This document shows positions 1 to 13,182 of a stretch of 64,000 nt of DNA, one piece after another. The translations under genes were made by a program, and so were the position numbers. This DNA comes from Oscillatoria sp. FACHB-1407. GTDB lineage: Bacteria; Cyanobacteriota; Cyanobacteriia; Elainellales; Elainellaceae. The DNA lies in contig NZ_JACJSA010000004.1 in NCBI RefSeq assembly GCF_014697545.1, forward strand, positions 62,001 through 126,000, read 5' to 3'. The notes beneath the pieces are model-generated. The model did no database searches and was not told the DNA's origin. It saw only the letters and a list, made by a program, of their open reading frames with translations. Position 1 is the first letter of the stretch. Every line of letters starts with the position of its first letter.

Positions 1-481
1 GCTCATCCCGCGTCAGTTCTTCGATCGCCCCTCGTGTTATCCCAATCACCGCATCCTTGGGCGTGTGTCCAGCCGCAAAGGCGTTGATCCCATACTCCTG
101 ATCCAACACGTAAACCGGGGGAACGGGCATATTAGCGGCGATCGCCATTTCTTCAACCACGTTAAGAAGCTGCTGCTCTGCCGGATTTGCCATCTCAGGA
201 ACTAGCAACTTGCCGCCCAAGTCTTTGGCGATCACCTTGCCGCCTGCCTTCAACAGACCTGCCTTGTACCAACTGCCCAACCCAACCACACCCGTTGTCA
301 GGACGGCAGTCCAAAAGAAGAGTTCTGGCTGCCATACTGTAACCGAACTGCCTGTTACTCCAAATGCAATCAGAGCGGCTCCATAAATACACAGGACGAC
401 GCAGATCAGCGACAAGATAAACAACCCAACTAACTGTTGGGTGTTGCGGCGAGCGCGATCTTGATGCTCAAAAAAGCTCAT
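1..481 (-). CDS. M48 family metalloprotease, N-terminal part (runs off left edge)
   Basis: This is the first 160 residues of a membrane-bound zinc protease of the M48 (HtpX/Oma1-like) family. The start ATG is at 481-479. Two hydrophobic segments lie at about residues 17-40 and 48-68, followed by a soluble part that ends in the stretch AFAAGHTPKDAVIGITRG, which in M48 proteins comes just before the HExxH zinc helix. The helix itself lies outside the window. The start is 5 bp after the lemA stop codon on the same strand, so the two are very likely cotranscribed; LemA-M48 pairs are common in bacteria. The family assignment is firm from the conserved segment; the substrate is unknown. It differs from the second M48 protein in the window (HtpX), which has a shorter N-terminal region. 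Confidence 0.85.
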   Translation of the reverse strand, partial: MSFFEHQDRARRNTQQLVGLFILSLICVVLCIYGAALIAFGVTGSSVTVWQPELFFWTAVLTTGVVGLGSWYKAGLLKAGGKVIAKDLGGKLLVPEMANPAEQQLLNVVEEMAIAANMPVPPVYVLDQEYGINAFAAGHTPKDAVIGITRGAIEELTRDE

Positions 482-486
482 AGAAG

Positions 487-1074
487 TTAGAAGGAGACAC
501 GAGGAGCATTTTTAACTTCAGGTGCCACGTCTTCTAGTAGGTCTGCCGGATTGAAGTTGAAGGAACCTGCAATCAAGTTACTGGGGAAGACTTCGCGCTT
601 CGTGTTGTAGAGCGTAACTGCGTCGTTAAATGCCTGACGGGCAAAAGCAACCCGGTTTTCCGTGGAGGACAATTCTTCCATCACCCGTGTCATGGTCTGG
701 TCTGCTTTCAGGTCGGGATAGGCTTCACTCAAAACCATTAACCGTCCCAGTGCTCCGGTTAAAGCGGCTTCTGCGGCTCCCAGTTGTTGCATGGCTTGCG
801 GATCACCGGGATCGCGAGATGCCCGACCATTAGCACTCACAGCCGCATTCCGAGCCGCAATCACAGCTTCCAGGGTTTCCCGCTCGTGCTTCATGTACCC
901 CTTCGCCGTTTCAACCAAATTGGGAATCAGGTCATATCGTCGCTGAAGTTGAACATCAATCTGCTTGTAGGCGTTTTTGTAGCGATTTCGCAGGGTGACA
1001 AGGCTGTTATACGCATTGATAACGATGAAGGCGAGTATCAACGCCAGCATCACGATAAAAATGAAGGCTCCCAT
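487..1074 (-). CDS. lemA: LemA family protein
   Basis: A 195-residue LemA-family protein: one N-terminal membrane helix (about residues 3-22), followed by a long helical domain with the family pattern YNSLVTLRNRYKNAYKQIDV and RRYDLIPNLVETAKGY near residues 23-61, and ending in the typical ...FNFNPADLLED segment. Length and architecture match the family. The molecular role of LemA is poorly defined; it is a membrane-anchored, four-helix-type protein often encoded next to M48 proteases, as here, where the protease start follows by 5 bp. The ATG at 1074 has an AGGA about 10 nt upstream. Function with the protease (for example as an adaptor) is inference from neighbourhood. Confidence 0.92.
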   Translation of the reverse strand: MGAFIFIVMLALILAFIVINAYNSLVTLRNRYKNAYKQIDVQLQRRYDLIPNLVETAKGYMKHERETLEAVIAARNAAVSANGRASRDPGDPQAMQQLGAAEAALTGALGRLMVLSEAYPDLKADQTMTRVMEELSSTENRVAFARQAFNDAVTLYNTKREVFPSNLIAGSFNFNPADLLEDVAPEVKNAPRVSF

Positions 1075-1813
1075 AGGGTTGAGTCCTGTATATGAGGGGT
1101 AGGGTACGCTCTACTCAAAAAATACCCAACGCAACCCTAAAACTCCGCAATGAAGTTAGTCGCTCGCTAGAAAATTCATCAAAGGTTACCTCTATCCTCA
1201 GGAATATTTATATGTTCCAATCAGCAATCACGAGCAAAAAGCTGTTTCTCAGAATCGTGTTTAGGAAGGGGCGATCGCTGGACTACAGCAGTCATACAGC
1301 GATTTTTGGATAAGGAAACCATAGCTATGCAGTGTGAATGGGTGGATGGGTGGATGGGTGGATGGGCGTGGGTGGCTTATGCAAGGCGCAACCGCTGTAA
1401 GTTAATTGGGAAAACGGCTCTGTCTTAGTCACCAGTCATTTGTCATGAGTTATTGGGGTGTTAGACCCAAATAGCGAATGACCATTCACCTATACCCCTG
1501 CGGCTACGTTTTCTTATAAACCAACCACAATTGCTCTATCTCTGCTTCAGAGCTCGATCTCCTAAATATCAAGCCAACCTTATGATTGAGCTTTAGAATT
1601 CAAATCCTTACTCTAGTGCAGTCAGTACCTACCTTTCTGACCATCCATCCCTATAATTAATAAAGTGCAACACAAGACTATTTAATTGCCGATTTGCCGA
1701 GAGAGTCTTGAACTTGGAATTTTGTTGGAGACTGCCCCCCAGCCTCATAACAGACCCAGCCATCAAACGAAGTCGGTGCGGCTTACAGTTGTAAATCGGG
1801 AGACAGATCATCT
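1075..1813. other. intergenic region between lemA and ndhH
   Basis: About 740 bp without a supportable gene. It separates the divergent lemA and ndhH and so should hold both promoters; I cannot point to a convincing -10/-35 pair. The notable element is a G-rich 8-bp repeat at 1340-1372, listed separately. Open frames here are short and lack recognisable content. Confidence 0.5.
1340..1372 (+). repeat. G-rich 8-bp tandem repeat with G-quadruplex pattern
   Basis: Five GGG runs are separated by TGGAT, TGGAT, TGGAT and CGT, arising from tandem copies of an 8-bp unit (GGGTGGAT). This satisfies the usual G3-loop(1-7) pattern for an intramolecular G-quadruplex on the plus strand. It lies between the divergent lemA and ndhH genes, about 440 bp before ndhH. 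Whether it forms a quadruplex in the cell or affects expression is not known. Confidence 0.7.
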
Positions 1814-2998
1814 ATGGCAATGATCGAAACCAAAACCGAGCCTATGGTGCTCAACATGGGTCCACACCACCCCTCAATGCACGGGGTGTTGCGTCTAATC
1901 GTCACATTGGATGGCGAAGACGTGGTGGACTGTGAGCCAGTCATTGGCTATTTGCACCGAGGCATGGAGAAGATCGCCGAAAACCGCACCAATATTATGT
2001 ATGTGCCCTACGTTAGCCGTTGGGATTATGCGGCGGGCATGTTTAACGAAGCCGTAACGGTCAATGCTCCTGAAAAGTTAGCAGATATTGCAGTGCCCAA
2101 ACGTGCCAGCTATATCCGCGTCATTATGCTGGAGTTGAACCGGATTGCCAACCACCTACTGTGGCTTGGTCCCTTTATGGCAGACGTAGGAGCACAAACT
2201 CCTTTCTTTTATATTTTCCGTGAACGGGAAATGATCTACGACCTGTGGGAAGCTGCAACAGGCTATCGCATGGTCAACAACAACTACTTCCGCATCGGTG
2301 GTGTCGCCGCTGACCTGCCCTACGGTTGGGTAGACAAGTGCGCTGACTTTTGTGATTACTTCATGCCTAAGGTCGATGAGTATGAGCGGTTGATCACCGA
2401 TAACCCCATCTTCCGACGTCGGGTGGAAGGGGTAGGCACGATTACCCGTGACCAGGCGATCAACTGGGGCTTGTCGGGTCCCATGCTGCGGGCTTCTGGG
2501 GTGAAGTGGGATCTGCGGAAGGTAGACCACTATGAGTGCTACGACGACTTTGATTGGGAAGTGCACTGGGAAACCGCAGGTGACTGCTTTGCCCGGTATC
2601 TGGTGCGGATGCGCGAGATGCGTGAGTCCGTCAAGATTATCCGTCAGGCATTAAAAGCACTGCCCGGTGGTCCTTACGAAAACTTGGAAGCCAAGCGGAT
2701 GTCGTCGGGTCCAAAGTCGGAGTGGAATGCCTTTGACTACCAGTTCATTGGTAAGAAGATTGCGCCTACTTTCAAAATTCCTAAAGGTGAACACTACGTC
2801 CGTGTAGAAAGCGGCAAAGGTGAACTGGGGATTTACATCATTGGGGATGACAACGTTTTCCCCTGGCGGTGGAAGATCCGGGCAGCCGACTTCAACAACC
2901 TGCAAATCCTGCCTTACCTGCTGAAGGGCGTGAAGGTGGCGGATATCGTCGCTATCCTGGGTAGCATTGACATCATCATGGGTTCCGTCGATCGCTAG
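1814..2998 (+). CDS. ndhH: NAD(P)H-quinone oxidoreductase subunit H
   Basis: NdhH (394 aa) is the 49-kDa/NuoD-type subunit of the cyanobacterial NDH-1 complex in the thylakoid membrane; it helps form the quinone-binding site between the peripheral arm and the membrane arm and works in respiration, cyclic electron flow and CO2 uptake. The N-terminus with the stretch [18 protein letters not shown], the [13 protein letters not shown] segment, the [11 protein letters not shown] segment and the C-terminal MGSVDR are all hallmark NdhH sequences, and the length equals that of other cyanobacterial NdhH. The ATG at 1814 gives the expected [12 protein letters not shown] start. It stands alone; other ndh subunits are not in the window. 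A riboflavin-type reductase gene follows 16 bp downstream on the same strand. Confidence 0.98.
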
Positions 2999-3014
2999 GT
3001 TGACTGAAATATCA

Positions 3015-3725
3015 ATGGGGCGATCGCACACAACGGTAGTTCTGGCAATGAGTGCCGATGGCAAAATTGCAGACTATCAGCGATCGCCTGCTCGTTTTGG
3101 TTCCTCGACGGATAAAGCACATCTAGAAAGCCAGATTGCTCAAGCTGATGCGGTGTTGTTTGGAGCGGAAACGCTGCGTGCCTACGGTACGACTTTACCG
3201 ATCCGGCAGACGCAGCTTCTAGACCAACGGCAACAGCAGGGCAAACCTCCGCAGCCTGTTCATATTGTTTGTTCGCGATCGGGAAAGTTGGACGCGAACT
3301 ATCCCTTTTTTCAGCAACCTGTTCCTCGGTGGCTGTTGACCACCTTAGAGGGAGCGATCGAATGGGACGAGAAGCCTGGATTCGATCGCATTCTGACTGT
3401 TCCAGTAGAGAATGGCGGGTTAGATTGGCAGGTTGCCTTTCAAGAATTTTTGCTAGCTGGATTTGAGCGAGTGGCTGTAACTGGGGGAGGAACCCTGGTT
3501 GCCTCGTTGCTAGAAGCCGATTTAATCGATGAATTGTGGATTACAGTGTGTCCCCTACTACTAGGAGGTAGGGATGCCCCAACGCTGTTGGAGGGAGAGG
3601 GATTCGCAGCAAAATTAGCTCCCCGTCTGGAATTGCTGTCGGTTGAGGCAGTGCAAAGTAGTTCCCCCAATGGGGTGATCGCCCAGGAAGTATTTTTGCA
3701 CTATCGAGTGCAACGTATTACTTGA
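3015..3725 (+). CDS. RibD C-terminal domain (dihydrofolate-reductase-fold) protein
   Basis: A 236-residue single-domain RibD_C/DHFR-like reductase. The sequence opens with TTVVLAMSADGKIAD, the NADPH-binding beginning of this fold, has DAVLFGAETLRAYG at about residues 46-59 and VAVTGGGTLVASLLEADLID in the C-terminal half, the conserved GGG turn and LID(E) motif. The family includes the pyrimidine reductase half of RibD and stand-alone relatives; there is no deaminase domain here, so this may be a separate riboflavin-pathway reductase or a relative of unknown substrate. An earlier in-frame ATG at 2967 would overlap the end of ndhH; the ATG at 3015 begins exactly where the family begins and was chosen. 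It lies 16 bp after ndhH and may be read with it. Confidence 0.85.
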   Translation: MGRSHTTVVLAMSADGKIADYQRSPARFGSSTDKAHLESQIAQADAVLFGAETLRAYGTTLPIRQTQLLDQRQQQGKPPQPVHIVCSRSGKLDANYPFFQQPVPRWLLTTLEGAIEWDEKPGFDRILTVPVENGGLDWQVAFQEFLLAGFERVAVTGGGTLVASLLEADLIDELWITVCPLLLGGRDAPTLLEGEGFAAKLAPRLELLSVEAVQSSSPNGVIAQEVFLHYRVQRIT

Positions 3726-3811
3726 TACAGTCGTAAAAGTGGCACATGTTTTGAGTGGACAGTTGGGGAGTTTGAATAGGCTAGGTTTACCTGAAACTCC
3801 GGTATTCCTTT

Positions 3812-4567
3812 ATGCCAGTTCTTAATCAACTACCTGCTCGTGAGATATACAACCCAGTCAGTCTGCCAACCGTCTCTGTGTTATCGGTGGATGCCTTAAT
3901 TCAACTCCCTGATTTTGAAGCGGCAGTTCACACAGTTGCAGATCATTACGCCTTTGAGCAGCACCCTTACTTGCAGTGGATGCAGGCTCCAACCACCACC
4001 CGTGATGCCTTTCGCCACAGCCAGTTATCCTTCCGGTTTGCCGTGGAGTCTTTTTCGCAATCACTCGCAGCCGTGTTAGCGCGGATTCTCTTGCTTGAAG
4101 ATCGCTTGGCACTGGCGGAAAACGTGGCTGAAGAACACGGACACGGCGATCGCCTACATGCTCACAAATACACCTTTCGGCAATATCTGCTAGCGTTGGG
4201 TGCTTCACCAGATGAGTTGACAAACCCCTGTTCCATTGCGGTGCTGGCGTTCAACCAATCCATCCTCAACTTTTGCCTCACGCAATCGGCTGAAGCTGGA
4301 GCCGCTGCTCTGGGCATGATTGAGCATTTGTATGTGCCGATTAGTGCGGCGATCGCCCGAACGGTACATGAACGAGGTTGGACGGCTTCGGGGTCACAGT
4401 CGCACTACACCGTGCATGAAGTGTTGGATGTCGAACATGCGCGAGATCTGCTGGCGATCGCGGCTCCTGCCTGGGAGTGCAAAACCTCTCGATTGCTCGT
4501 GGCTCAAGGATTGCTGCTCGGTTCCCACTATTTCTGGACGTTGTACCATGACTTACCCCGCTTCTGA
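3812..4567 (+). CDS. heme-oxygenase-like di-iron oxidase, CADD/UndA type
   Basis: A 251-residue all-helical protein of the heme-oxygenase-like di-iron oxidase (HDO) superfamily, which includes chlamydial CADD, UndA and a structurally solved Nostoc homologue of unknown function. The iron ligands can be aligned by spacing: E171 in GMIEHLYVP, then H202-x3-D206-x2-H209 in VHEVLDVEHA, the exact spacing of the CADD ligands; the first ligand pair is within AENVAEEHGHG (candidates E103/E108 and H109/H111). Such enzymes use O2 for N-oxygenation, oxidative C-C cleavage or desaturation of small molecules. The next gene starts 20 bp inside its 3' end, which indicates translational coupling and a shared pathway. 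The substrate is unknown. Confidence 0.82.
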   Translation: MPVLNQLPAREIYNPVSLPTVSVLSVDALIQLPDFEAAVHTVADHYAFEQHPYLQWMQAPTTTRDAFRHSQLSFRFAVESFSQSLAAVLARILLLEDRLALAENVAEEHGHGDRLHAHKYTFRQYLLALGASPDELTNPCSIAVLAFNQSILNFCLTQSAEAGAAALGMIEHLYVPISAAIARTVHERGWTASGSQSHYTVHEVLDVEHARDLLAIAAPAWECKTSRLLVAQGLLLGSHYFWTLYHDLPRF

Positions 4568-5675
4568 TCCGATTTCTGAGATTGCTTTCTCTCAAGTGCG
4601 GGAAGATCCGCGTGTGGAATTGAGCCTGGTGGATTACCTGGCGGAGCGGCAGAATCATCCATTGCGGGTGCTGTTGGTGGCATCTGGAGGATGCACCGCT
4701 TTGAGCCTGTTAGTTTCTCCGGCGATCGCCCAGGTAGAAGCGGTCGATCTGAATCCCGCACAGTTGCATCTGGTGGAATTGCGGCGACACGCTCTGGTGC
4801 ATCTGTCGTTGGAGGATCAACTCCAGTTAATTGGCGCAGATTGTTTAAGTGATCCACCAACGTTACATCAAGGCGAATTGCCATTCGCCCCTACCCATCG
4901 TCGCCAGGAACTTTATGACAAGTTGCGACCCTGGTTGCCAGAAGCCACGCGAGTCTTTTGGGATGTGCGACCGGAGCAAATTGCCTTTGGGGTGAATCGA
5001 GTTGGACGATTTGAGGCGTTATTTCGGGAACTGGCTCAGGCATTTGCAGCAGAAGGATTAGACCCACTAAATCAACCTGCGATCGCCCTAACTAGCCCTC
5101 GCTGGAAGCCCCTATTTGAGAAGGTGTTTGAGCGCAACAAATTAGCACGAATCTTTGGAGAAGCGGCGGTGAATTACTCGATGGATCGCAGCTTTGGCGA
5201 ACACTTTGCCGATGTGTTTGCTCAAGCGTTGCGTAGTAAAAACCCAGCACAAAACTACTTTGTGACGCAAGTGTGGGGCGATCGCTACACCACGGGTAAA
5301 CAGGGTTTGCCCCTCTACTTGCAAGCTCCGGCGCAACTCATGATTCGCCACCTCGGCGTAGAACGGTTGCGTCTGCATCAAGGAGCATTAGCCGATGTGA
5401 TGACCCAACTGGCTCAAACGGCTCCCTTTGATCTGATTCAACTGTCCAATATTTCGGATTGGATGCCTGTGGCAGAGTTGCACAAGTTGTTGGCGATCGC
5501 CACTGGTTGCCTCAATTCTGGAGGTGCGTTGTTGGGGCGCAGGCTCAATGGCGATCATCACCTTGCAAATGTTATGGCAGAACATGTGCGGGTCAATGCT
5601 GAACTGAGCCAGCAATTGCAGCAAGCCGAACGGTCTTATTTTTACCGGGAAGTGGTGGTTGGGTTTGCTCAGTAG
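4548..5675 (+). CDS. BtaA-like 3-amino-3-carboxypropyltransferase (DUF3419)
   Basis: A 375-residue DUF3419 protein, the family of BtaA, which transfers the 3-amino-3-carboxypropyl group of S-adenosylmethionine to diacylglycerol in betaine-lipid synthesis. A SAM-binding motif I (LLVASGGCTALSLL) lies at about residues 35-48, with motif II VEAVDLNPAQLHLVELRRH at about 58-76, and a second Rossmann-like part near FDLIQLSNISDWM at the C-terminal end. The ATG at 4548 overlaps the upstream oxidase gene by 20 bp; a longer in-frame reading from 4320 would only translate the oxidase gene out of frame. Since no BtaB-type methyltransferase is adjacent and the partners are a di-iron oxidase and a GNAT enzyme, the acceptor may be a small molecule rather than a lipid; that is inference. 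Confidence 0.85.
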   Translation: MTYPASDPISEIAFSQVREDPRVELSLVDYLAERQNHPLRVLLVASGGCTALSLLVSPAIAQVEAVDLNPAQLHLVELRRHALVHLSLEDQLQLIGADCLSDPPTLHQGELPFAPTHRRQELYDKLRPWLPEATRVFWDVRPEQIAFGVNRVGRFEALFRELAQAFAAEGLDPLNQPAIALTSPRWKPLFEKVFERNKLARIFGEAAVNYSMDRSFGEHFADVFAQALRSKNPAQNYFVTQVWGDRYTTGKQGLPLYLQAPAQLMIRHLGVERLRLHQGALADVMTQLAQTAPFDLIQLSNISDWMPVAELHKLLAIATGCLNSGGALLGRRLNGDHHLANVMAEHVRVNAELSQQLQQAERSYFYREVVVGFAQ

Positions 5676-5723
5676 AGGGAATGGGGAATGGGGTGTGGGG
5701 TGTGGGGTATGGGGAATAGCTTT

Positions 5724-5782
5724 TCATCCTTCATTCTTTATCCTTTACTCTTCATTTTTCATTCTTTATCCTTCATCCTTTT
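5724..5782. repeat. heptamer array (TTTATCC/TTCATTC) before the GNAT gene
   Basis: About eight degenerate 7-bp units of the type TTTATCC, TTCATTC and TTCATTT run up to 2 bp before the start codon of the GNAT gene. The same heptamer in the other orientation (GGATAAA) follows that gene at 6718-6745 and again borders the HNH gene at 7199-7244. The pyrimidine-rich array replaces any Shine-Dalgarno-like sequence in front of the GNAT start. Confidence 0.75.
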
Positions 5783-5783
5783 T

Positions 5784-6710
5784 ATGTCTCTTGCTGTTAA
5801 ACCTATTTCTCTCAGCGATCGCCCCATCTATCAATCAAAATTGGTGGAATTGGAGCAAACCGCCAGTTATCCGCTGGGAGAAGATGCCTTTCAGTTGGAT
5901 CATGGAGCAGATTATTTTGCCTTCTTTGATCGCCTGGGTCAGGTCAACTATTACGCCGTTTTAGATGGGGAAAAAGCGATCGCAGTGGGGGCAGCAGTGT
6001 TGCGTCAGGTTCCTGATCGTGCGGGAGAAAAGCCTTGTCCAGCGTGGTATCTGTGTGATCTAAAAGTGCATCCAGACTATCGACGGCAGCATTTGTCACT
6101 GCGGTTGTTTCGTCATGCCTTTACCAAGCATTTTGCGGAGTGCGATCGCGGCTATGCGATTTCGATGAATCCGGGAGATGACCATCCCAACCGGGTTGTA
6201 CCCCTGCTACAGTTTATCTGTCCTGTGAAGTTCCGCTGCACTGCCACTTTAGAAATCTATAGTTTAAGTGCTGATGAGATGCAGCGAGTTGAACCCCTGC
6301 TGAAGGAGCATCGAGGTGATATCTCCTATCTGTCGCTCAAGGGCATTAAGGATTTGCGATTACAAAGCACTGGAGCAGTGTTGCCATTGTTGCATGTTCA
6401 GCTTGGAGACACCGCACCGCCTCATACCTCCTACCTCACGCCAAGTCCAATAGGGAATATGACCCACAGCGGTTTGAAACCCCCATCACATCAGGCTCTA
6501 ACAATCCAAAATCGCCAATCCAAAATCCAAAATGGTATCTGTTATTTCTCGCCCATTCCAGGATTTACCCACATGTTTTGTGCTCTCCGTGGAGATGCGT
6601 TGGCGATCGCCCTTTCAAAACAAGGAATTCTACCTCAAGCTACCGCCAGTATTGTTAGTCACGGTATGAATGACAGCGATTGGCGGTTTGTGCTGACGAG
6701 CGACATATAG
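5784..6710 (+). CDS. GNAT family N-acyltransferase
   Basis: A 308-residue GNAT-fold protein. The acetyl-CoA-binding motif A is seen as LCDLKVHPDYRRQHLSLRLF at about residues 90-109, where RRQHLS replaces the classical Q/RxxGxG/A. The protein is the third gene of the oxidase/aminocarboxypropyltransferase run, 108 bp after it, and could acylate the amino group made by the upstream enzymes; this is inference. An odd feature is a poorly structured stretch at about residues 208-252 that contains ALTIQNRQSKIQNG, encoded by an in-frame tandem repeat of CCAAAAT-type heptamers at 6502-6533, so an intergenic-type repeat has expanded inside the gene without breaking it. The first in-frame start (5688) lies in low-complexity DNA; the ATG at 5784 fits the family start better. 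Confidence 0.78.
   Translation: MSLAVKPISLSDRPIYQSKLVELEQTASYPLGEDAFQLDHGADYFAFFDRLGQVNYYAVLDGEKAIAVGAAVLRQVPDRAGEKPCPAWYLCDLKVHPDYRRQHLSLRLFRHAFTKHFAECDRGYAISMNPGDDHPNRVVPLLQFICPVKFRCTATLEIYSLSADEMQRVEPLLKEHRGDISYLSLKGIKDLRLQSTGAVLPLLHVQLGDTAPPHTSYLTPSPIGNMTHSGLKPPSHQALTIQNRQSKIQNGICYFSPIPGFTHMFCALRGDALAIALSKQGILPQATASIVSHGMNDSDWRFVLTSDI
6502..6533 (+). repeat. in-frame CCAAAAT-type heptamer repeat inside the GNAT gene
   Basis: Three to four copies of a CCAAAAT/CCAATCC-type unit lie in the coding frame of the GNAT gene and translate into the low-complexity peptide QNRQSKIQN. This unit is a familiar intergenic heptamer of filamentous cyanobacteria. The reading frame stays open to the end. 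Confidence 0.75.
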
Positions 6711-6715
6711 AAGAA

Positions 6716-6985
6716 GGGATAAAGGATAAGGGATAAAGGATAAAAGTGTTGGTAGTCAATGGTCAGTGGTCAATGGTCAGTGGTCAATGGTCAATAGTCA
6801 GTGGTCAATGGTCAATGGTCAGTGGTCAATGGTCAATGGTCAGTGGTCAATGGTCAATGGTCAGTGGTCAATGGTCAGTGGTCAATGGTCAGTGGTCAGT
6901 GGTCAATGGTCAATAGTCAATGGTCAGTGGTCAATAGTCAATGGTCAGTGGTCAATGGTCAATAGTCAATGGTCAATGGTTCGTT
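6716..6985 (+). repeat. heptameric short tandem repeat arrays after the GNAT gene
   Basis: Two arrays in a row. At 6718-6745 there are four copies of GGATAAA/GGATAAG; at 6751-6985 about thirty-three copies of TCAATGG, TCAGTGG and TCAATAG. The array starts 5 bp after the GNAT stop codon. An open frame of QWSMVNG-type peptides through the repeat is an artefact of the 7-bp unit and is not called as a gene. Nothing like CRISPR spacers is present. Confidence 0.92.
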
Positions 6986-7024
6986 GTTAATAGCCAACTG
7001 TTAAGGCGCAATCCGTTGAGTTTT

Positions 7025-7138
7025 ATGTGCGACACTTCAAACATCATGCGCGAAAGTCTGAGCGTCACAGATAAAAGACTGAGCGTCATGCACGAAAGTC
7101 TGGGTTTCGCTCACCGTGATCTGAGCATTAGCCACTAA
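7025..7138 (+). repeat. four 21-bp imperfect repeats, potential 37-codon ORF
   Basis: From 7049 to 7132 four 21-bp units share the core GAAAGTCTGAGCGTCA. On the plus strand an ATG at 7025 gives 37 codons made of heptapeptides (RESLSVT, DKRLSVM, HESLGFA, HRDLSIS) and ending in TAA at 7136. The opposite strand is also open with AQTFVHD-type heptads. There is no clear ribosome binding site, so I treat this as a repeat with an open frame rather than a proven gene. Confidence 0.5.
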
Positions 7139-7198
7139 TCTTTGGGAATCATCAGACATCCACAATGGACTATCAGCGATTTGGTTTTTGCTACCTTT

Positions 7199-7244
7199 TG
7201 CAAATCCTTTATCCTTCATCCTTCATCCTTTATCCTTTATCCTT
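7199..7244 (-). repeat. heptamer array (GGATAAA) at the 3' end of the HNH gene
   Basis: About six units of TTTATCC/TTCATCC (GGATAAA on the minus strand). The array begins inside the last codons of the HNH nuclease gene: its final glycine and stop codon read GGA TAA, which is the first heptamer. It therefore supplies or coincides with the stop codon of that gene. Confidence 0.8.
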
Positions 7245-7764
7245 CTTCGTTTTGCTCCTTCCAAAATTGCTCGGCGAAGGCAACGGTGGGATGAATTGGG
7301 GCTTTGGGTTTGCTTTTGAGGGGCATATTGGCTTCGTGGGGGGTGCGATCGCCCTTTCGAGAATTACAGCGATCGCAGGCAGCGACGACGTTATCCCAGG
7401 TGTGAGTCCCCCCTCTGGAGCGGGGCATGATGTGGTCGATGGTCAGGTTGCGGGTGCTGCCGCAGTATTGGCAGGTGTGATTGTCACGCCGCAAGACTTC
7501 TCGACGATTGACGGGGGGCATTTTCCAGAGCCGTTCGGGATTGGTAACGGTGAGGCGGATATGTTCGGGGACGTGGACAACTAAACTCGGCGATCGCACC
7601 TGCCAGGATCGCGTTGTGCTAAGTTCCAGGGATTCTGCTTGCCCACTCACTAGAAGAACAACGGCTCGCTTGATGTTAATGCGGGCTAAAGGCAGATAGT
7701 TCTTAGAAAATACGACAACCGAGTTTTGTAGGACGGGCACTTGGTTTGGGCGACTGGCTCTCAT
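7237..7764 (-). CDS. HNH endonuclease
   Basis: A 175-residue HNH nuclease. The C-terminal half has the zinc and catalytic pattern: C98-Q-Y-C101, D110-H111 in TIDHIMPRSRGG, N125 in TWDN, and C130-x2-C133 followed by NSRKGDR. The N-terminal half (about 1-80) is the extra domain found in many cyanobacterial copies, with VLQNSVVVFSKNYLPLARIN. GAGGAG sits 8 nt before the ATG at 7764, so that start is preferred to the GTG at 7773. Stand-alone HNH proteins of this type are abundant in cyanobacteria and their biological role is unclear; no restriction-modification, toxin or intron partner is adjacent. The stop codon lies in a heptamer repeat. Confidence 0.88.
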   Translation of the reverse strand: MRASRPNQVPVLQNSVVVFSKNYLPLARINIKRAVVLLVSGQAESLELSTTRSWQVRSPSLVVHVPEHIRLTVTNPERLWKMPPVNRREVLRRDNHTCQYCGSTRNLTIDHIMPRSRGGTHTWDNVVAACDRCNSRKGDRTPHEANMPLKSKPKAPIHPTVAFAEQFWKEQNEEG

Positions 7765-8425
7765 GGGCAACACTCCTCAAAAACGAGAACCCCTGCTTTT
7801 GGTGTAAAAAGCAGGGGCAACATTCGGCTTATATCAAGGCTTGGGCAGACGCAGGTGAACGGTCGCACTGCCGACGGTAAGTAGAACGGCGAGTGCAGAC
7901 GCACTGATATCGGTTGAATCAGAAATGGGGTGGGTCTGGTTGAGGATGCAATCGACAGCACGGGCAGAAACTGGATTAACTGGATTAAGTGGATGACTGA
8001 AATGATTCAGGTAATCGCGTTGATGTGAAACGGTTGAATCAGAATGCTGCCATTCAACTCAATGATTGGCATGAAATACAGGATGTATTTAAGTGTTGTA
8101 ACGTGCAGCGATCGCCAACCAATCCCTCTAAAACGAACTATATCGCAAGATCTCCTGGATGTGATCCCTGGCGGTTGACAATATTAATGTTGTTGTTAAT
8201 GTCATTGCCTTTTAAGGGGATTTCTTAAGTAATCCGCTTCAAGTTAGATGAACTTCAGTTATCATGGCAACCTAAGATTGATTAAACTTGGCACTATGGA
8301 GAGCGGGTTGATTAAGTTCAAACCACTAAATACAGCATCAGAGTGGCATCCCTACTGATTAAAGAGGGCTACGGAGAACTCGGTTACAGAGAAGTCATAG
8401 TAACGTCTGTCCAGGTCATGGTTCG
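7765..8425. other. intergenic region between HNH and AMIN genes
   Basis: About 660 bp with no gene I can support. A perfect 11-bp-arm hairpin, CCCCTGCTTTT with loop GGTGT and its complement, lies at 7790-7817, 26 bp upstream of the HNH start. It is followed by no T-run on either strand that would make it a clear terminator for a known gene. The rest shows nothing distinctive. Confidence 0.5.
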
Positions 8426-10042
8426 GTGGAGCATATGCAGAAGGCACAATTTGGGCAACGATTTTGGTTAAGCCTTGGACTGGTGGGATTGTCGATAGTC
8501 GGGAATCCGGTCACGATTGCGCTAGGACTGGGGGCGATCGCCATCACCTCTGCTGCACCGGGGTATGCCGCTACACTCACCCGTTGGCAGTTCAACGCCA
8601 ATACCTCCGAGTTAGAGTTTACGGTGCCAGAAGGGGTAACTCCGCGATACTTTTTGTTAGCGCAACCTGCCCGGATTGTGCTGGATTTGCCAAATACAAC
8701 CGTGGGGAGTGTGCCTGCGGGGCAAACCTATTCAGGTCAGGTGCGCCAGATTCGGGTGAGTGAGTTTCAACCGGGAGTGACTCGCATTGTGATCGAGTTG
8801 TCTCCTGATGCGGTTTTGGCGGCTCAACAGGTTGACTTGCGAGAGGTTGGGCAGGGTCGCTGGGTAGTGCGTCCTCGGTTTGCGGGGGATGCTCCTCCTG
8901 TGGCAGCGCAACCTGCCCCTCCTCCCGTGGCTCCTGCTCCTCAACCGTCTGTGCAGCCCGCCCCGTTGCCAGAACGTGACCCCGTTGCAGAACTCTCGGA
9001 GACAGTGCGCGATCCCGTTATGGTGCAACCTCCCGCCGAAACCGCCGTGACTCCTGCCCCCAGTCCTACCCCTGCTCCGGCAGCACCCTTACCTCCACTG
9101 GAACCAAACGCAACTGAGATTCCTGTGGAGATTGCTGAACCTGTTACCCCTGTTGCTCCTCCGACAGCCACTCCTGAGCCAACTTCTGAGCCGACCCCTG
9201 AAGTTGCCAGTGCACCTCAACCTGCTCCAGTGGAGACGCCTAGCCCAACCGCACCTGTGGCTACCCCCTCGCCTGAACCCTACGATCCGCAGTTGCCGAC
9301 GACGTTGCCCCCGGCAACCTTGTCTAGCGATCGCCCCGTCACCGTTCAAGTGCCTGCACTGGGCAGTCCGCCTGCCAATCGTCCGACCCCTACTCCCCCT
9401 CCCGTCTTGCAACCTGCTCCGGTGCAACCTCCGATGAGTAGTCTGCCGCCTGCATCTCCCACCCCGAATGAGGCGACTCCCCCTGGGGTGACTCCGCCTG
9501 CGACGGCTCCAGTCGCACCGCCTGCACCTGTTGCGGTGGCTCCAAACCCCAATATTCTGTTGCCATCGGGGACGGTGTTGCGATTGCGGTATCCGCGTGA
9601 GTCTGTGTTAGAACTTCAGGCAGGTTCTCCCTGGCAGGAAGTGTTGGTGCTCAATCAGGCAGTGCGCGATCGCGCTGGCAACATCATTGCCCCAGAAGGT
9701 AGCCCGGTGATTGGTCGGTTTGAAACGGATCAAACAGGAAGTCGCTTTGTGGCGCAAGCCATCACACTGCAAGGACGCAATATTAGACTGACGGCTCAGT
9801 CTAACCGATTGGGGGGCGATCGCCAGGTTTCTGAAAATCAGTTAGTGCGAAACTCTGCCATTGGTGGATTGGCTTTGACCGTATTGGGTGCGTTTACGGG
9901 CATTGGGGCGATCGCCGGAGCCGTTGTCGGAGCGACTGCTGGAGCCGCAACCACCTATATCACTGCGCCTCAACCTGCGATTATTCAACCCAATCAAATT
10001 GTTGAGGTGCGTTTGACGGAAGACCTATCGCGATCGCAGTAA
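8426..10042 (+). CDS. AMIN-domain envelope protein with proline-rich linker
   Basis: A 538-residue exported protein. Residues 1-48 form a long signal sequence ending AAPGYAA; about 50-155 is an AMIN domain (LTRWQFNANTSELEFTVPEG, PARIVLDLPNT), which in amidases and secretins targets peptidoglycan in the periplasm; about 155-370 is a Pro/Ala/Thr-rich linker; the C-terminal part (about 372-538) has GTVLRLRYPRESVLELQAG and a glycine/alanine-rich hydrophobic hairpin (about 475-510), similar to TrbI/VirB10-like or organelle-type surface domains. There is no amidase catalytic domain, so it is more likely a cell-wall-binding structural protein. The GTG at 8426 or the ATG at 8435 could be the start; neither has a well-placed Shine-Dalgarno sequence. 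Its stop is 2 bp before a heptamer array. Confidence 0.85.
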   Translation: MEHMQKAQFGQRFWLSLGLVGLSIVGNPVTIALGLGAIAITSAAPGYAATLTRWQFNANTSELEFTVPEGVTPRYFLLAQPARIVLDLPNTTVGSVPAGQTYSGQVRQIRVSEFQPGVTRIVIELSPDAVLAAQQVDLREVGQGRWVVRPRFAGDAPPVAAQPAPPPVAPAPQPSVQPAPLPERDPVAELSETVRDPVMVQPPAETAVTPAPSPTPAPAAPLPPLEPNATEIPVEIAEPVTPVAPPTATPEPTSEPTPEVASAPQPAPVETPSPTAPVATPSPEPYDPQLPTTLPPATLSSDRPVTVQVPALGSPPANRPTPTPPPVLQPAPVQPPMSSLPPASPTPNEATPPGVTPPATAPVAPPAPVAVAPNPNILLPSGTVLRLRYPRESVLELQAGSPWQEVLVLNQAVRDRAGNIIAPEGSPVIGRFETDQTGSRFVAQAITLQGRNIRLTAQSNRLGGDRQVSENQLVRNSAIGGLALTVLGAFTGIGAIAGAVVGATAGAATTYITAPQPAIIQPNQIVEVRLTEDLSRSQ

Positions 10043-10044
10043 TA

Positions 10045-10257
10045 GTTAATGGTTAATGGTTAATGGTTAATGGTTAATGGTTAATGGTTAATGGTTAATG
10101 GTTAATGGTTAATGGTTAATGGTTAATGGTTAATAGTTAATGGTTAATGGTTAATGGTCAATGGTTAATGGTTAATGGTCAATGGTTAATGGTTAATGGT
10201 CAATGGTTAATGGTTAATGGTTAAGGGTTAATGGTTAATGGTCAATGGTTAATGGTT
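10045..10257 (+). repeat. heptamer array (GTTAATG)n
   Basis: About thirty copies of GTTAATG with occasional GTCAATG variants, starting 2 bp after the stop codon of the AMIN gene. It is the same class of array as at 6751, 21053 and 23494, with a different consensus unit. Confidence 0.95.
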
Positions 10258-10259
10258 GA

Positions 10260-10445
10260 GCGCATAGAGCAACAATTGACGATTGACGATTGACGATTGA
10301 CGATTTCCCTAGTTGAGGGTTAAGCGCATAGAGCAACAATTGACGATTAACGATTGACGATTGACGATTTCCCTAGTTGAGGGTTAAGTACATAGAGCAA
10401 CAATTGACGGTTGACAATTGACAATTGACACTTACAGTTTCCCTT
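10260..10445 (+). repeat. 64-bp tandem repeat (two full copies and a divergent third)
   Basis: Units begin GCGCATAGAGCAACAATTG, continue with several TTGACGA heptamers and end TTTCCCTAGTTGAGGGTTAA. Copy 1 is 10260-10323, copy 2 is 10324-10387 and a divergent copy 3 starts at 10388 and leads into the 5' leader of the GST gene. The unit holds an inner heptamer array, so the locus is a repeat of repeats. Confidence 0.9.
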
Positions 10446-10483
10446 GGCACTTAACGGTTTCCCTTCGTCTTAAGAGGTTTTTT

Positions 10484-11098
10484 ATGCAACTGATCGGCAT
10501 GTTGGATTCACCCTATGTTCGCCGTGTTGCCATTTCCTTAAAACGGATGGGTATACCGTTTGAACATCGTCCCCTCTCTGTGTTCCGCAATTTTGAGGAG
10601 TTTCAGCGGGTCAACCCTGCGGTTAAAGCACCCACATTTGTCTCAGACAAAGGGGAAGTGCTGATGGACTCGACCCTCATCCTTGATTACCTGGAAGCGA
10701 TTATTGCATCTGACAAGCGATTGATGCCTGCTGATCCGGATCAACGTCTAATAGCACTGAGACTGATTGGTCTTGCGCTGCTTGCCTGTGAGAAGACCGT
10801 GCAATTGGTGTACGAAACTACCTTGCGCCCACCGGAAAAACAACACCAACCCTGGCTCGATCGCGTCGATCGCCAGTTGCATACGACTTACAATTTATTA
10901 GAAGCTGCCATGGAGTCTGCGAATCCCTGGTTTTTGGGTACTCAACTCATGCAACCGGATATCACTGTGGCTGTGGCATGGCGGTTTACGCAACATACGA
11001 TTCCTCAGATTATCGATGGGGAATCTTATCCGGCATTGGCGCGTTTTTCGGAGCAGGCGGAGGAGTTGCCGGAGTTTGTAGCGACTCCGCTTGAGTAA
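10484..11098 (+). CDS. glutathione S-transferase family protein
   Basis: A 204-residue soluble GST. The thioredoxin-like N-terminal domain starts MQLIGMLDSPYVRRVAISL, with SP-Y at the place of the active-site Ser/Cys motif, PAVKAPTFVSDKGEVLMDST (the cis-proline and glutathione gamma-Glu-binding D-S pair) at about residues 46-65, and an all-helical C-terminal domain follows. AAGAGG lies 6 bp upstream of the ATG at 10484; an upstream in-frame start at 10418 would begin in repeat DNA and is rejected. The substrate is unknown. It stands alone; the leader is formed by 64-bp repeats. Confidence 0.88.
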   Translation: MQLIGMLDSPYVRRVAISLKRMGIPFEHRPLSVFRNFEEFQRVNPAVKAPTFVSDKGEVLMDSTLILDYLEAIIASDKRLMPADPDQRLIALRLIGLALLACEKTVQLVYETTLRPPEKQHQPWLDRVDRQLHTTYNLLEAAMESANPWFLGTQLMQPDITVAVAWRFTQHTIPQIIDGESYPALARFSEQAEELPEFVATPLE

Positions 11099-11114
11099 TT
11101 GGCGGAATACTCGA

Positions 11115-11232
11115 TTCTGACCTGGATGCGCACCCCTGCAAGCCACATTCCATGGGGTGAAGGCGGTCAGAAAGCTTCCCAGCATCCGGGTTTGAGCCAT
11201 TGTCTCTGTTCTAAGCTTTCTGACCAAAGCTA
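11115..11232 (-). repeat. dispersed repeat with TATAGC end and internal inverted repeat
   Basis: On the minus strand it begins TATAGCTTTGGTCAGAAAGC and carries the complementary AAGCTTTCTGACC about 45 bp later, so the transcript could fold into a long stem. Better copies are at 45113-45236 and 52860-52961; half copies are at 15400-15456 and 54885-54920. It does not encode protein and looks like a MITE-type element. Confidence 0.7.
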
Positions 11233-11280
11233 TATCTCTCTTTAGTCACTTTGGACAGAAATTATTTTGCCCAAATTCTC

Positions 11281-11357
11281 ATTCCTGGCTAGAAGCCAGG
11301 AATGCACACCTGGAGGCAGAGCCTCCATAACTCCATTTCCAAGCAGGAGCTTGGAAA
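11281..11357 (+). repeat. composite of three perfect hairpins (REP-like)
   Basis: Three inverted repeats follow each other: ATTCCTGGCT/AGCCAGGAAT (11281-11303), GGAGGC-AGA-GCCTCC (11312-11326) and TTTCCAAGC-AGGA-GCTTGGAAA (11336-11357). The same three modules occur in the opposite order and orientation at 45583-45690, so this is a mobile or dispersed palindromic element. A separate 20-bp perfect palindrome, CAAGGGGCTTAAGCCCCTTG, lies further on at about 11472-11491. Confidence 0.88.
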
Positions 11358-11577
11358 CGAGGTTTGTCTGGGATTTGTTTGCAAAGAGAGTGACAGAAGA
11401 GGGATATATACATTCATCTTTTCACAGCTATAGCAGTCCCAAATCATTTGTGAAATAGCATCTGTATAGAACAAGGGGCTTAAGCCCCTTGCCTGTTCAC
11501 GATTCAAATAGGATCGCTATATCTACACCGGACTGCTGTAGAGTTGAGGCATTGGAATCCTTCAGGGCAATGTCGTC

Positions 11578-12945
11578 ATGAGTCAACTACCAAATCGTGT
11601 TCCTGCTCCTACCTGGTGGCAACTCCTTACTTGGATCGCCGACCCAATTAAATTTCAAGACCGATATCATCAGCGGTATGGCGATATTTTTACCATGAAC
11701 TTAGGCAGGCTTGGCGGATATGTGGTTATTGGCGAGCCGAAGTTGATTCAAGAGATCTTTAGTCAAGATTCTAAGTTTGAAATTGGGCGAGGAAATGTGC
11801 TTGCTCAACCCTTGATTGGTCGAAACTCACTGATGTTAATGGATGGCGATCGCCACAAGCGAGAGCGCAAGCTCTTGATGCCATCCTTTCACGGTGAACG
11901 GTTGCAAGCATACGCGACTCAGATTTGTGCGATCGCTGACCAGATAGCCAGTCAATGGCACGTTGGGCAGCCTTTTGTGGTGCGATCGACCATGCAAAAA
12001 ATCAGTCTGGAACTGATTTTGCAGGTGGTGTTTGGCTTGAGTGAGGGTGAACGCTATCAACAACTCAAACCATTGCTGACGGAATGGCTAGATATGACCG
12101 ATTCGCCATTGCGATCGAGCCTATTGTTTTTGAAGTTTTTGCAGAAAGATTGGGGCGCGTGGTCACCCTGGAGCCAAATGAAACAGCGGCAGCGGCAAGT
12201 GCATCAGCTCTTGCAGGATGAAATTAGCGATCGCAAAAACCAGGGTGATGCCGGACGGATCGATGTCCTCAGCCTGATGATGGCAGCCCGCGATGAGCAA
12301 GGCAACGCCATGACCGATGAAGAATTGAGAGACGAACTGATTACGCTATTGTTTGCGGGACATGAGACGGTTGCTACAAGCCTCTCCTGGGCGTTTTATG
12401 AGATTCATCGTCAGCCACATATCCTTGAAAAGCTGTTAGTGGAGTTGGAGAGCTTTGGGGCAACCCCATCCGTAGGGGCGATCGCCCCCCAGGAGGATCT
12501 GCTCCGCATTGCCCAGTTGCCCTATCTCTCGGCGGTCTGTCAGGAAACTCTGCGAATGTATCCAGTGCTTCCAGTCATTTTTCCCCGCATTACTAAAGCT
12601 CCGGTTACCCTCGCGGGACGTTCCTTTGACGCAGAAACGGTATTAATGCCCAGTATCTATCTCGTGCATTATCGGGAAGACCTGTACCCTCATCCTCACG
12701 AGTTCAAGCCAGAGAGGTTTCTGGAGCGACAGTATGCTCCATCAGAATATTTTCCGTTTGGGGGTGGTGTCCGTCGCTGTCTGGGGTATGCACTGGCGCA
12801 GCTAGAGATGAAGTTAGTGTTGGCAACAGTGGTGTCTCGATATCGCCTTGAATTATTAGAGACAAAGCCTGTCAAAATGCAACGACGGGGGTTTACCCTC
12901 GCTCCCAAGGGAGGCGTGCGAATGGCAATAATTGGGAAACGATAA
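11578..12945 (+). CDS. cytochrome P450, CYP110-like
   Basis: A 455-residue bacterial P450 without a membrane anchor. The I-helix oxygen-binding motif A260-G-H-E-T264, the K-helix E323-T-L-R326 and the heme loop [10 protein letters not shown] with the thiolate ligand C401 are all intact. The N-terminus ([20 protein letters not shown]) and overall sequence resemble CYP110, a cyanobacterial family whose members oxidise fatty acids, alkanes and terpenoids. No terpene synthase, ferredoxin or reductase is next to it, so the substrate and electron donor cannot be read from context. It is monocistronic, with repeat-rich DNA upstream. Confidence 0.93.
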
Positions 12946-13182
12946 CCGAATTTGACCGTTGCGTCATGAAGCTCAAAAACGATTCAAGGAGTGGGTTTTG
13001 CCGTCGAACGCACTACAGAGTACAGGCTGATTTGCTAAACCCGCCCGTACAATTTGCGGATTGATTAAACCCATCATCCTAAGTTTTTGCTATATCCACC
13101 TTTTGAAGGTTATTTTAGGGGAACCTGTGGAGTAATATCGAGTCCGGTAATCTGTCTCAGATAAAGCATCCCTAAAAAATTA

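What the first reader, a model, noticed from the sequence alone, without database searches (positions are those of the whole stretch)
3812..6710. Possible new pathway: di-iron oxidase, aminocarboxypropyltransferase and GNAT enzyme
Three genes in one direction, the first two overlapping by 20 bp, encode a CADD/UndA-type oxidase with all the distal iron ligands in place (E171, H202, D206, H209), a BtaA-like enzyme that would hand the 3-amino-3-carboxypropyl group of SAM to an acceptor, and a GNAT enzyme that could acylate the new amino group. No betaine-lipid methyltransferase is present, so a betaine lipid is not the obvious product. I know of no named pathway with this set. A SAM-derived amino acid or metallophore-like or signal-like small molecule is possible.
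Basis: partly seen in the sequence, partly recalled or inferred. Interest (0 to 1): 0.72.

Follow-up and report, generated by a model that had tools for sequence, protein, structure and literature searches.

The report
Unnamed conserved four-enzyme amino-acid pathway
Three neighbouring genes in a cyanobacterium are the core of a small, unnamed gene set that recurs in very distant bacteria, usually with a fourth enzyme, and probably makes an unknown modified amino acid from S-adenosylmethionine.

Summary
The three genes are real and intact: a haem-oxygenase-like diiron oxidase (HDO, 3812-4567), a DUF3419/BtaA-like enzyme (ACPT, 4548-5675) and a GNAT acyltransferase (5784-6710). They are not a chance neighbourhood. 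Of 27 loci found with the ACPT in a scan of 84,980 species genomes, 18 also carry HDO and GNAT and 14 carry a fourth gene too, a membrane desaturase/hydroxylase (DES): ten Cyanobacteria and four Verrucomicrobiota. The triad is also in Planctomycetota, a Chloroflexota-labelled MAG and a Mycobacterium plasmid. In 386 cyanobacterial genomes 4 have the set. No DES was found in the window's genome. The 22 cassette ACPTs in a tree are split from BtaA and from the genome's second DUF3419 protein by a 100/99 branch. The HDO keeps all iron ligands but is not a CADD/pABA synthase. No paper found joins these families. Most likely product class: a SAM-derived, substituted homoserine-type amino acid that is oxidised and N-acylated. 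Acp transfer, acceptor and product are inferred, not shown.

The parts
3812..4567 (+). HDO: haem-oxygenase-like dimetal oxidase, 251 aa; inferred ligands E107 (or E108), H118, E171, H202, D206, H209
   Evidence: PF14518 63.8 bits; PDB phmmer CADD 1rcw 4.4e-11; these residues invariant in 24 of 24
4548..5675 (+). ACPT: DUF3419/BtaA-like SAM enzyme, 375 aa, putative 3-amino-3-carboxypropyltransferase; overlaps HDO by 20 bp
   Evidence: PF11899 119.4 bits; shares conserved positions with a BtaA; AF2 mean pLDDT 91.7, class I methyltransferase core
5784..6710 (+). GNAT acyltransferase, 308 aa; start set by homologues
   Evidence: PF00583 23.6 bits, cut-off 20.7; three relatives 55-59% identical; AF2 model of a relative (L061) pLDDT 88.7, GNAT fold
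6432..6548 (+). 39-aa in-frame insert in the GNAT, absent from the 21 relatives aligned; its 3' part matches a dispersed repeat of this genome
   Evidence: 15 other matches in the genome, covering about 6493-6539
5677..5781 (.). 7-bp short tandem repeats between ACPT and GNAT
   Evidence: TRF
3726..3811 (+). gap upstream of HDO: DES stands at this side of HDO in the related cyanobacterial operons; no trace of it here
   Evidence: tblastn of DES on window 1-15000, best E 0.24; own genome

Best explanation
The window holds the HDO-ACPT-GNAT core of a dedicated small-molecule operon whose usual cyanobacterial form is DES-HDO-ACPT-GNAT. [quoted passage not shown] HDO, a diiron O2 enzyme, oxidises the amino-acid substrate or product (desaturation, C-C cleavage or N-oxygenation); DES, where present, adds a further hydroxylation or desaturation; GNAT acylates the alpha-amine, as maturation or self-protection. 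Shown here: the genes, their domains and conserved putative metal ligands, their conserved linkage across phyla, and the separate ACPT clade. Inferred: every chemical step. In this genome the product would lack the DES modification.
For: HDO, ACPT and GNAT together in 18 of 27 ACPT loci, all four genes in 14 of 27, with different gene orders (DES-HDO-ACPT-GNAT in ten cyanobacterial loci; HDO-DES-ACPT-GNAT in four Verrucomicrobiota), so linkage was kept or remade. Of 386 cyanobacterial genomes, 4 have the ACPT orthologue (58% identity or more) and the same 4 have HDO and GNAT beside it. Uabimicrobium keeps DES unlinked (502.5 bits). Pairwise identities of the four proteins co-vary (Spearman 0.82-0.92; shared ancestry alone gives some of this). 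ACPT shares E19-D20, ASGG, DxN, N236, D304-W305, R331 and DRSxxY with a Sinorhizobium BtaA. HDO's solved relatives by profile are CADD, a pABA synthase, BesC and HrmI, which act on amino acids or a protein Tyr (partly recalled; CADD); the best-matching curated model for three DES is the arginine hydroxylase GntB. GNAT's best solved relatives are aminoglycoside N-acetyltransferases, weakly (E 0.003). In L073 the triad is near an AMP-binding/PP-binding/reductase protein and an asparagine synthase.
Against: The ACPT fold is that of ordinary methyltransferases (best Z 13.0, OvoA, rmsd 3.3 over 192 residues); the aminocarboxypropyltransferase MtNAS appears only at Foldseek E 0.011, probability 0.41, so methyl transfer is not excluded. 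The DES-GntB link is weak (62-87 bits, cut-off 380; CrtR 41-59). Outside Cyanobacteria and Uabimicrobium the kinship is distant: ACPT 27-31%, HDO 34-41%, and GNAT in Verrucomicrobiota and Gemmataceae only 26-31% at E 1e-6 to 2e-10, so a common function there is less sure. Four of 27 loci have ACPT relatives without partners in view. HDO also occurs without ACPT (G096; no DUF3419 gene annotated near it on three of six Streptomyces plasmid hits looked at). No DES was found in the window genome and its GNAT carries an insert, so its copy may be altered or decaying.
Confidence: 0.55

Rival explanations
1. Betaine or homoserine lipid synthesis: ACPT adds the aminocarboxypropyl group to diacylglycerol, DES and HDO work on acyl chains, and GNAT N-acylates the head group.
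For: DUF3419 is the BtaA family (name recalled); DES matches Pfam FA_desaturase; in M. riyadhense the triad is beside an RND transporter, a class that exports lipids in mycobacteria (recalled).
Against: The 22 cassette ACPTs in the tree are cut off from BtaA and other DUF3419 proteins by a 100/99 branch; no methyltransferase among the four flanking window genes run against Pfam and only weak hits to a putative BtaB in the genome (9, best 32.2 bits); DES scores the amino-acid hydroxylase model above the DesA/DesB desaturase models.
Confidence: 0.15
2. ACPT is an ordinary methyltransferase, or a SAM cyclase (azetidine-2-carboxylate or homoserine lactone type), and the pathway tailors another amino acid.
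For: Fold matches are almost all methyltransferases; SAM cyclases with methyltransferase folds exist (PMC10491745, passages seen).
Against: Full-length homology to BtaA including conserved positions outside the SAM-binding core.
Confidence: 0.2
3. A stress-protection or redox set around the HDO, like Acinetobacter DtpC, rather than a biosynthetic pathway.
For: An HDO-domain protein with this role is reported (PMC13232832, passages seen); HDO relatives occur without ACPT.
Against: DtpC is co-transcribed with a catalase; here the recurrent partners are a SAM-dependent enzyme and an acyltransferase.
Confidence: 0.06
4. Horizontal hitch-hiking: genes transferred together without joint function.
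For: Patchy distribution (4 of 386); short repeats around the window copy.
Against: Linkage in more than one gene order under five phylum labels, and co-varying identities.
Confidence: 0.04

Closest known systems
BtaA (DUF3419) of betaine-lipid synthesis
   Same: same Pfam family, shared conserved positions with a Sinorhizobium BtaA
   Different: separate clade; no BtaB partner seen; partners are HDO, GNAT and usually DES
CADD/PabS self-sacrificing pABA synthases and other HDOs (BesC, HrmI)
   Same: HDO family with the same putative metal ligands; Tyr53 aligns with CADD Tyr27
   Different: CADD Lys152 (amine donor, PMC11965152, passages) aligns with Ile181, invariant in 24 of 24; TIGR04305 far under cut-off; the genome has a separate CADD-family protein (290 bits)
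GntB (guanitoxin, L-Arg hydroxylase) and RtxC (dihydrorhizobitoxine desaturase)
   Same: DES has the His boxes of FA_desaturases and matches the GntB model best of the NCBIfam models
   Different: 62-87 bits in three DES against 304.8 for a Paraburkholderia RtxC homologue; DES is at most a sister group
Rhizobitoxine operon (rtx)
   Same: small operon that builds and then desaturates a homoserine ether (PMC3222319, passages)
   Different: rtx forms the ether with an O-acetylhomoserine sulfhydrylase-like RtxA domain; here SAM is the proposed donor; no HDO or GNAT is annotated in the Paraburkholderia operon (PLSDB gene tables are incomplete)

Membership tests
Betaine-lipid pathway (BtaA/BtaB) | DUF3419 domain over cut-off | tested here: met
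   119.4 bits, cut-off 28.2
Betaine-lipid pathway (BtaA/BtaB) | groups with BtaA in a tree | tested here: not met
   opposite side of a 100/99 branch (one BtaA only; long-branch warnings apply)
Betaine-lipid pathway (BtaA/BtaB) | BtaB N-methyltransferase beside it | tested here: not met
   neighbouring genes are HDO and GNAT; no methyltransferase among four further flanking genes run against Pfam
Betaine-lipid pathway (BtaA/BtaB) | BtaB anywhere in the genome | tested here: inconclusive
   9 weak hits, best 32.2 bits, 29% over 111 aa; the query is a BtaB by position only
Betaine-lipid pathway (BtaA/BtaB) | acp transfer to diacylglycerol | not testable with these tools
   needs assay
HDO superfamily | PF14518 and the six metal ligands | tested here: met
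   ligand identity by alignment with CADD, CADD ligand set recalled
HDO superfamily | O2-activating dimetal centre | not testable with these tools
   needs spectroscopy
CADD/PabS pABA synthase | TIGR04305 cut-off | tested here: not met
   26.5 of 200 bits
CADD/PabS pABA synthase | amine-donor lysine (CADD Lys152) | tested here: not met
   Ile181 in the phmmer alignment, invariant in 24 of 24; role of Lys152 from PMC11965152
GntB/RtxC amino-acid desaturase-hydroxylases (DES) | NF041365 cut-off | tested here: not met
   62-87 of 380 bits in three DES; the RtxC homologue itself reaches 304.8, also under the cut-off
GntB/RtxC amino-acid desaturase-hydroxylases (DES) | FA_desaturase domain and His boxes | tested here: met
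   135.6-152 bits in three DES; H82, H86, H118, H121, H122, H258, H261, H262 invariant in 19 of 19
GNAT acyltransferases | GNAT fold and Pfam match | tested here: met
   PF00583 23.6 bits, cut-off 20.7; fold of a relative, not of the window protein

The most novel reading that the evidence does not exclude
A SAM-dependent route to oxyvinylglycine-type antimetabolites: ACPT makes an O-substituted homoserine straight from SAM (BtaA chemistry moved from lipid to small molecule), an RtxC-like DES desaturates it to the enol ether, HDO makes or modifies the acceptor, and GNAT masks the amine of the toxic amino acid. Strains without DES, such as this one, would make the dihydro form.
Probability: 0.1. 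Interest if true: 0.85.

Novelty: new variant of a known kind. Interest (0 to 1): 0.64.

Why it matters
A four-enzyme set this widely conserved with no assigned product is a short, testable route to a new metabolite. If the reading is right it would give the DUF3419 family a function beside betaine lipid and add a reaction to the roughly dozen HDOs validated so far (PMC13108848, section read). Carriers include named strains, some with culture-collection numbers (Calothrix PCC 7103, Dulcicalothrix desertica PCC 7102, Phormidium tenue FACHB-1050).

Tried and rejected
Led nowhere: Rfam gave no match in the window and, in five relatives' loci, one tRNA only. No shared regulator box upstream of DES in 12 relatives by four simple patterns; upstream of the window HDO there is one NtcA-like GTAN8TAC at -97, inside the preceding gene's end and not seen in those 12. 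Promoter-like sites in 3500-7300 are fewer than in shuffles (1 against 3.4) and terminator-like sites near the mean (5 against 4.1). The ACPT profile against PDB sequences gave nothing better than E 0.06. Known acp-transferases did not stand out among the fold matches shown (50 rows each).

Rejected: HDO as a pABA synthase (no Lys152 equivalent; the genome has its own CADD-family protein); ACPT as the genome's other DUF3419 (that is L001); a GNAT start at 5688 (repeat DNA); a gvg-type FVG cluster (PMC8064604, passages: the genes named there are other families; 'heme' does not occur, desaturase was not searched).

Rows dropped or mis-set: the trees held rows read in a wrong frame (L001_d, L005_d, L024_d among them) and are not used; one search drops these, adds the correct own paralogue, and lacks nine other DUF3419 hits that my script did not place (L004, L007, L008, L010, L011, L014, L025, L029, L030) and five of the partial or near-duplicate cassette ACPTs (L062, L066, L074, L078, L079). 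L061 is the same contig as G227 C23 and L072 the same as G078 C445, so these are not independent.
Full report
OBSERVATION. The window lies in contig C4 of an 8.13-Mb genome of 66 contigs; its phylum-mates include named cyanobacteria (G227 is the Pseudanabaena lw0831 contig). HDO 3812-4567 and ACPT 4548-5675 overlap by 20 bp, and the GNAT ends at 6710. Pfam identifies PF14518, PF11899 and PF00583 above their cut-offs, the last only just. NCBIfam gives a sub-threshold CADD match for HDO (26.5 of 200 bits) and nothing for the other two. The GNAT start is best placed at 5784, where its relatives begin. The space before it is 7-bp repeat DNA, and a 7-bp array of about 32 copies follows the gene at 6755-6980.

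THE GENES BELONG TOGETHER. A scan of 386 cyanobacterial genomes with each protein gave the ACPT orthologue (58% identity or more) in 4, HDO at 60% or more in 5, and GNAT in 4. Other DUF3419 matches at E 1e-12 or better are 37% identical or less. All three are adjacent and collinear in the same 4 genomes (G000, G227, G043, G125), of four different families; the fifth, G096, has HDO without ACPT or GNAT at those limits. Leaving out the window's own genome, three ACPT carriers falling by chance among four HDO carriers in 385 has a probability of about 4e-7; this is my arithmetic and ignores shared ancestry.

A FOURTH GENE. In those three other genomes an FA_desaturase-family gene (DES, PF00487 135.6-152 bits) stands directly before HDO and is 64-67% identical between them. 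I did not find it in the window's genome: best single-sequence hit 34.5 bits at 23% identity, no hit at 1e-18 with a profile, no trace within window 1-15000.

BREADTH. One scan of 84,980 species genomes with an ACPT alignment gave 27 loci. In these: HDO, ACPT and GNAT in 18; HDO and ACPT without GNAT in 3 (two end at the contig edge); ACPT and GNAT without HDO in 2 (L079 begins at a contig edge; L066 is a truncated cassette); ACPT alone in 4. DES is in 18, all four genes in 14: ten cyanobacteria (Pseudanabaena, Phormidium, Scytonematopsis, Calothrix, Dulcicalothrix, Leptolyngbyaceae) and four Verrucomicrobiota, where the order is HDO-DES-ACPT-GNAT. Identity to the window outside Cyanobacteria is 41% (ACPT), 52% (HDO) and 39% (GNAT) in Uabimicrobium, and in the other triad carriers 27-30%, 34-41% and 26-32%; DES stays at 51-53% in Verrucomicrobiota. 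The planctomycete Uabimicrobium has HDO-ACPT with GNAT 1.8 kb on and DES about 0.5 Mb away (502.5 bits), and Leptolyngbya RL_3_1 has a DES cut by a contig end (249.5 bits); of 8 genomes searched for DES these two have a strong match, two more have matches of 53-60 bits, and four have none at 1e-10. A plasmid search added Mycobacterium riyadhense, whose DUF3419, 'iron-containing redox enzyme' and GNAT genes are consecutive and followed by an RND transporter gene; the three score 260, 237 and 153 bits against profiles of the cassette proteins. Related HDO genes on three annotated Streptomyces plasmids (of six Streptomyces hits) have no DUF3419 gene annotated within 10-12 kb.

EVOLUTION. A tree of 35 DUF3419 proteins puts its 22 cassette members, with 3 lone relatives, on one side of a branch of 100/99 support; a Sinorhizobium BtaA (so named because a methyltransferase-like ORF follows it, my reading), one further relative and 8 other DUF3419 proteins, among them the window genome's own second copy, lie on the other (the program warns of long branches). 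Pairwise identities of the four proteins co-vary across loci (Spearman 0.82-0.92 over 16-22 loci), as expected if they are inherited or transferred together, though species history adds to this.

ENZYMES. HDO: E107, E108, H118, E171, H202, D206 and H209 are invariant in 24 of 24 sequences. By profile the solved relatives are CADD 1e-14, a pABA synthase 1e-10, BesC 1e-4 and HrmI 5e-4. CADD's amine donor Lys152 (PMC11965152, passages) aligns with Ile181, so pABA synthesis by the CADD mechanism is unlikely; the genome has another CADD-family protein (290 bits). ACPT: shares with the BtaA the positions E19-D20, S46-G48, D67, N69, N236, D304-W305, R331 and S363-Y366, invariant or nearly so in 10 aligned sequences; Q72 is His in that BtaA. 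The AlphaFold model (pLDDT 91.7) has a class I methyltransferase core. GNAT: weak sequence kinship to aminoglycoside N-acetyltransferases (E 0.003), GNAT fold in the model of a relative (pLDDT 88.7). DES: invariant His boxes; the best curated model is the guanitoxin arginine hydroxylase GntB, but at 62-87 bits (CrtR 41-59), whereas the desaturase of a putative rhizobitoxine operon of Paraburkholderia phymatum (PMC5789663, passages; record) reaches 304.8 bits.

MECHANISM. [quoted passage not shown] A GNAT would acylate the amine. The simplest reading is a small SAM-derived amino acid, oxidised by HDO and again by DES where present, and N-acylated. Which oxidation, which acceptor and which order are not known. 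The triad near an AMP-binding/PP-binding/reductase protein and an asparagine synthase in L073 fits a role in secondary metabolism.

NOVELTY. No paper in the held open-licence library has both 'DUF3419' and 'heme-oxygenase-like', and the listings of seven further searches show none that names this set. The enzyme families are known and the combination appears unnamed, hence 'new variant of a known kind'.

Noticed in passing
window 6755-6980, 5677-5781, 7204-7252: Several 7-bp short tandem repeat arrays (GTCAATG about 32 copies; GGGAATG; ATCCTTT) around the cassette; a dispersed repeat supplies part of the GNAT insert (15 other matches in the genome).
   Followed up: partly
L053:6598-7281: The same genome has a CADD-family protein (TIGR04305 290 bits over the cut-off of 200), a candidate self-sacrificing pABA synthase in a cyanobacterium.
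   Followed up: partly
L094:7985-8968 and L095:8722-9696: A related desaturase (205-218 bits to the DES profile) in two other cyanobacteria lies beside a GH3-like and a GNAT-like protein (both my reading, not run against Pfam): perhaps a second unnamed pathway.
   Followed up: no
L073:3093-13383: Triad in a Chloroflexota-labelled MAG near an AMP-binding/PP-binding/reductase protein, an AAA/cytidylyltransferase-like protein and an asparagine synthase.
   Followed up: partly
L104:3013-6966: Mycobacterium riyadhense plasmid with DUF3419, HDO and GNAT genes consecutive, then an RND transporter.
   Followed up: partly
L066:7850-9802: A Pseudanabaena MAG with a truncated cassette: DES, HDO and the ACPT N-terminus are not found and other DNA stands there.
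   Followed up: partly
window 3000-3725: A RibD_C-domain gene ends 86 bp before HDO in the same direction; I saw no such gene directly before the cassettes whose neighbours I listed (by eye, not by Pfam).
   Followed up: partly
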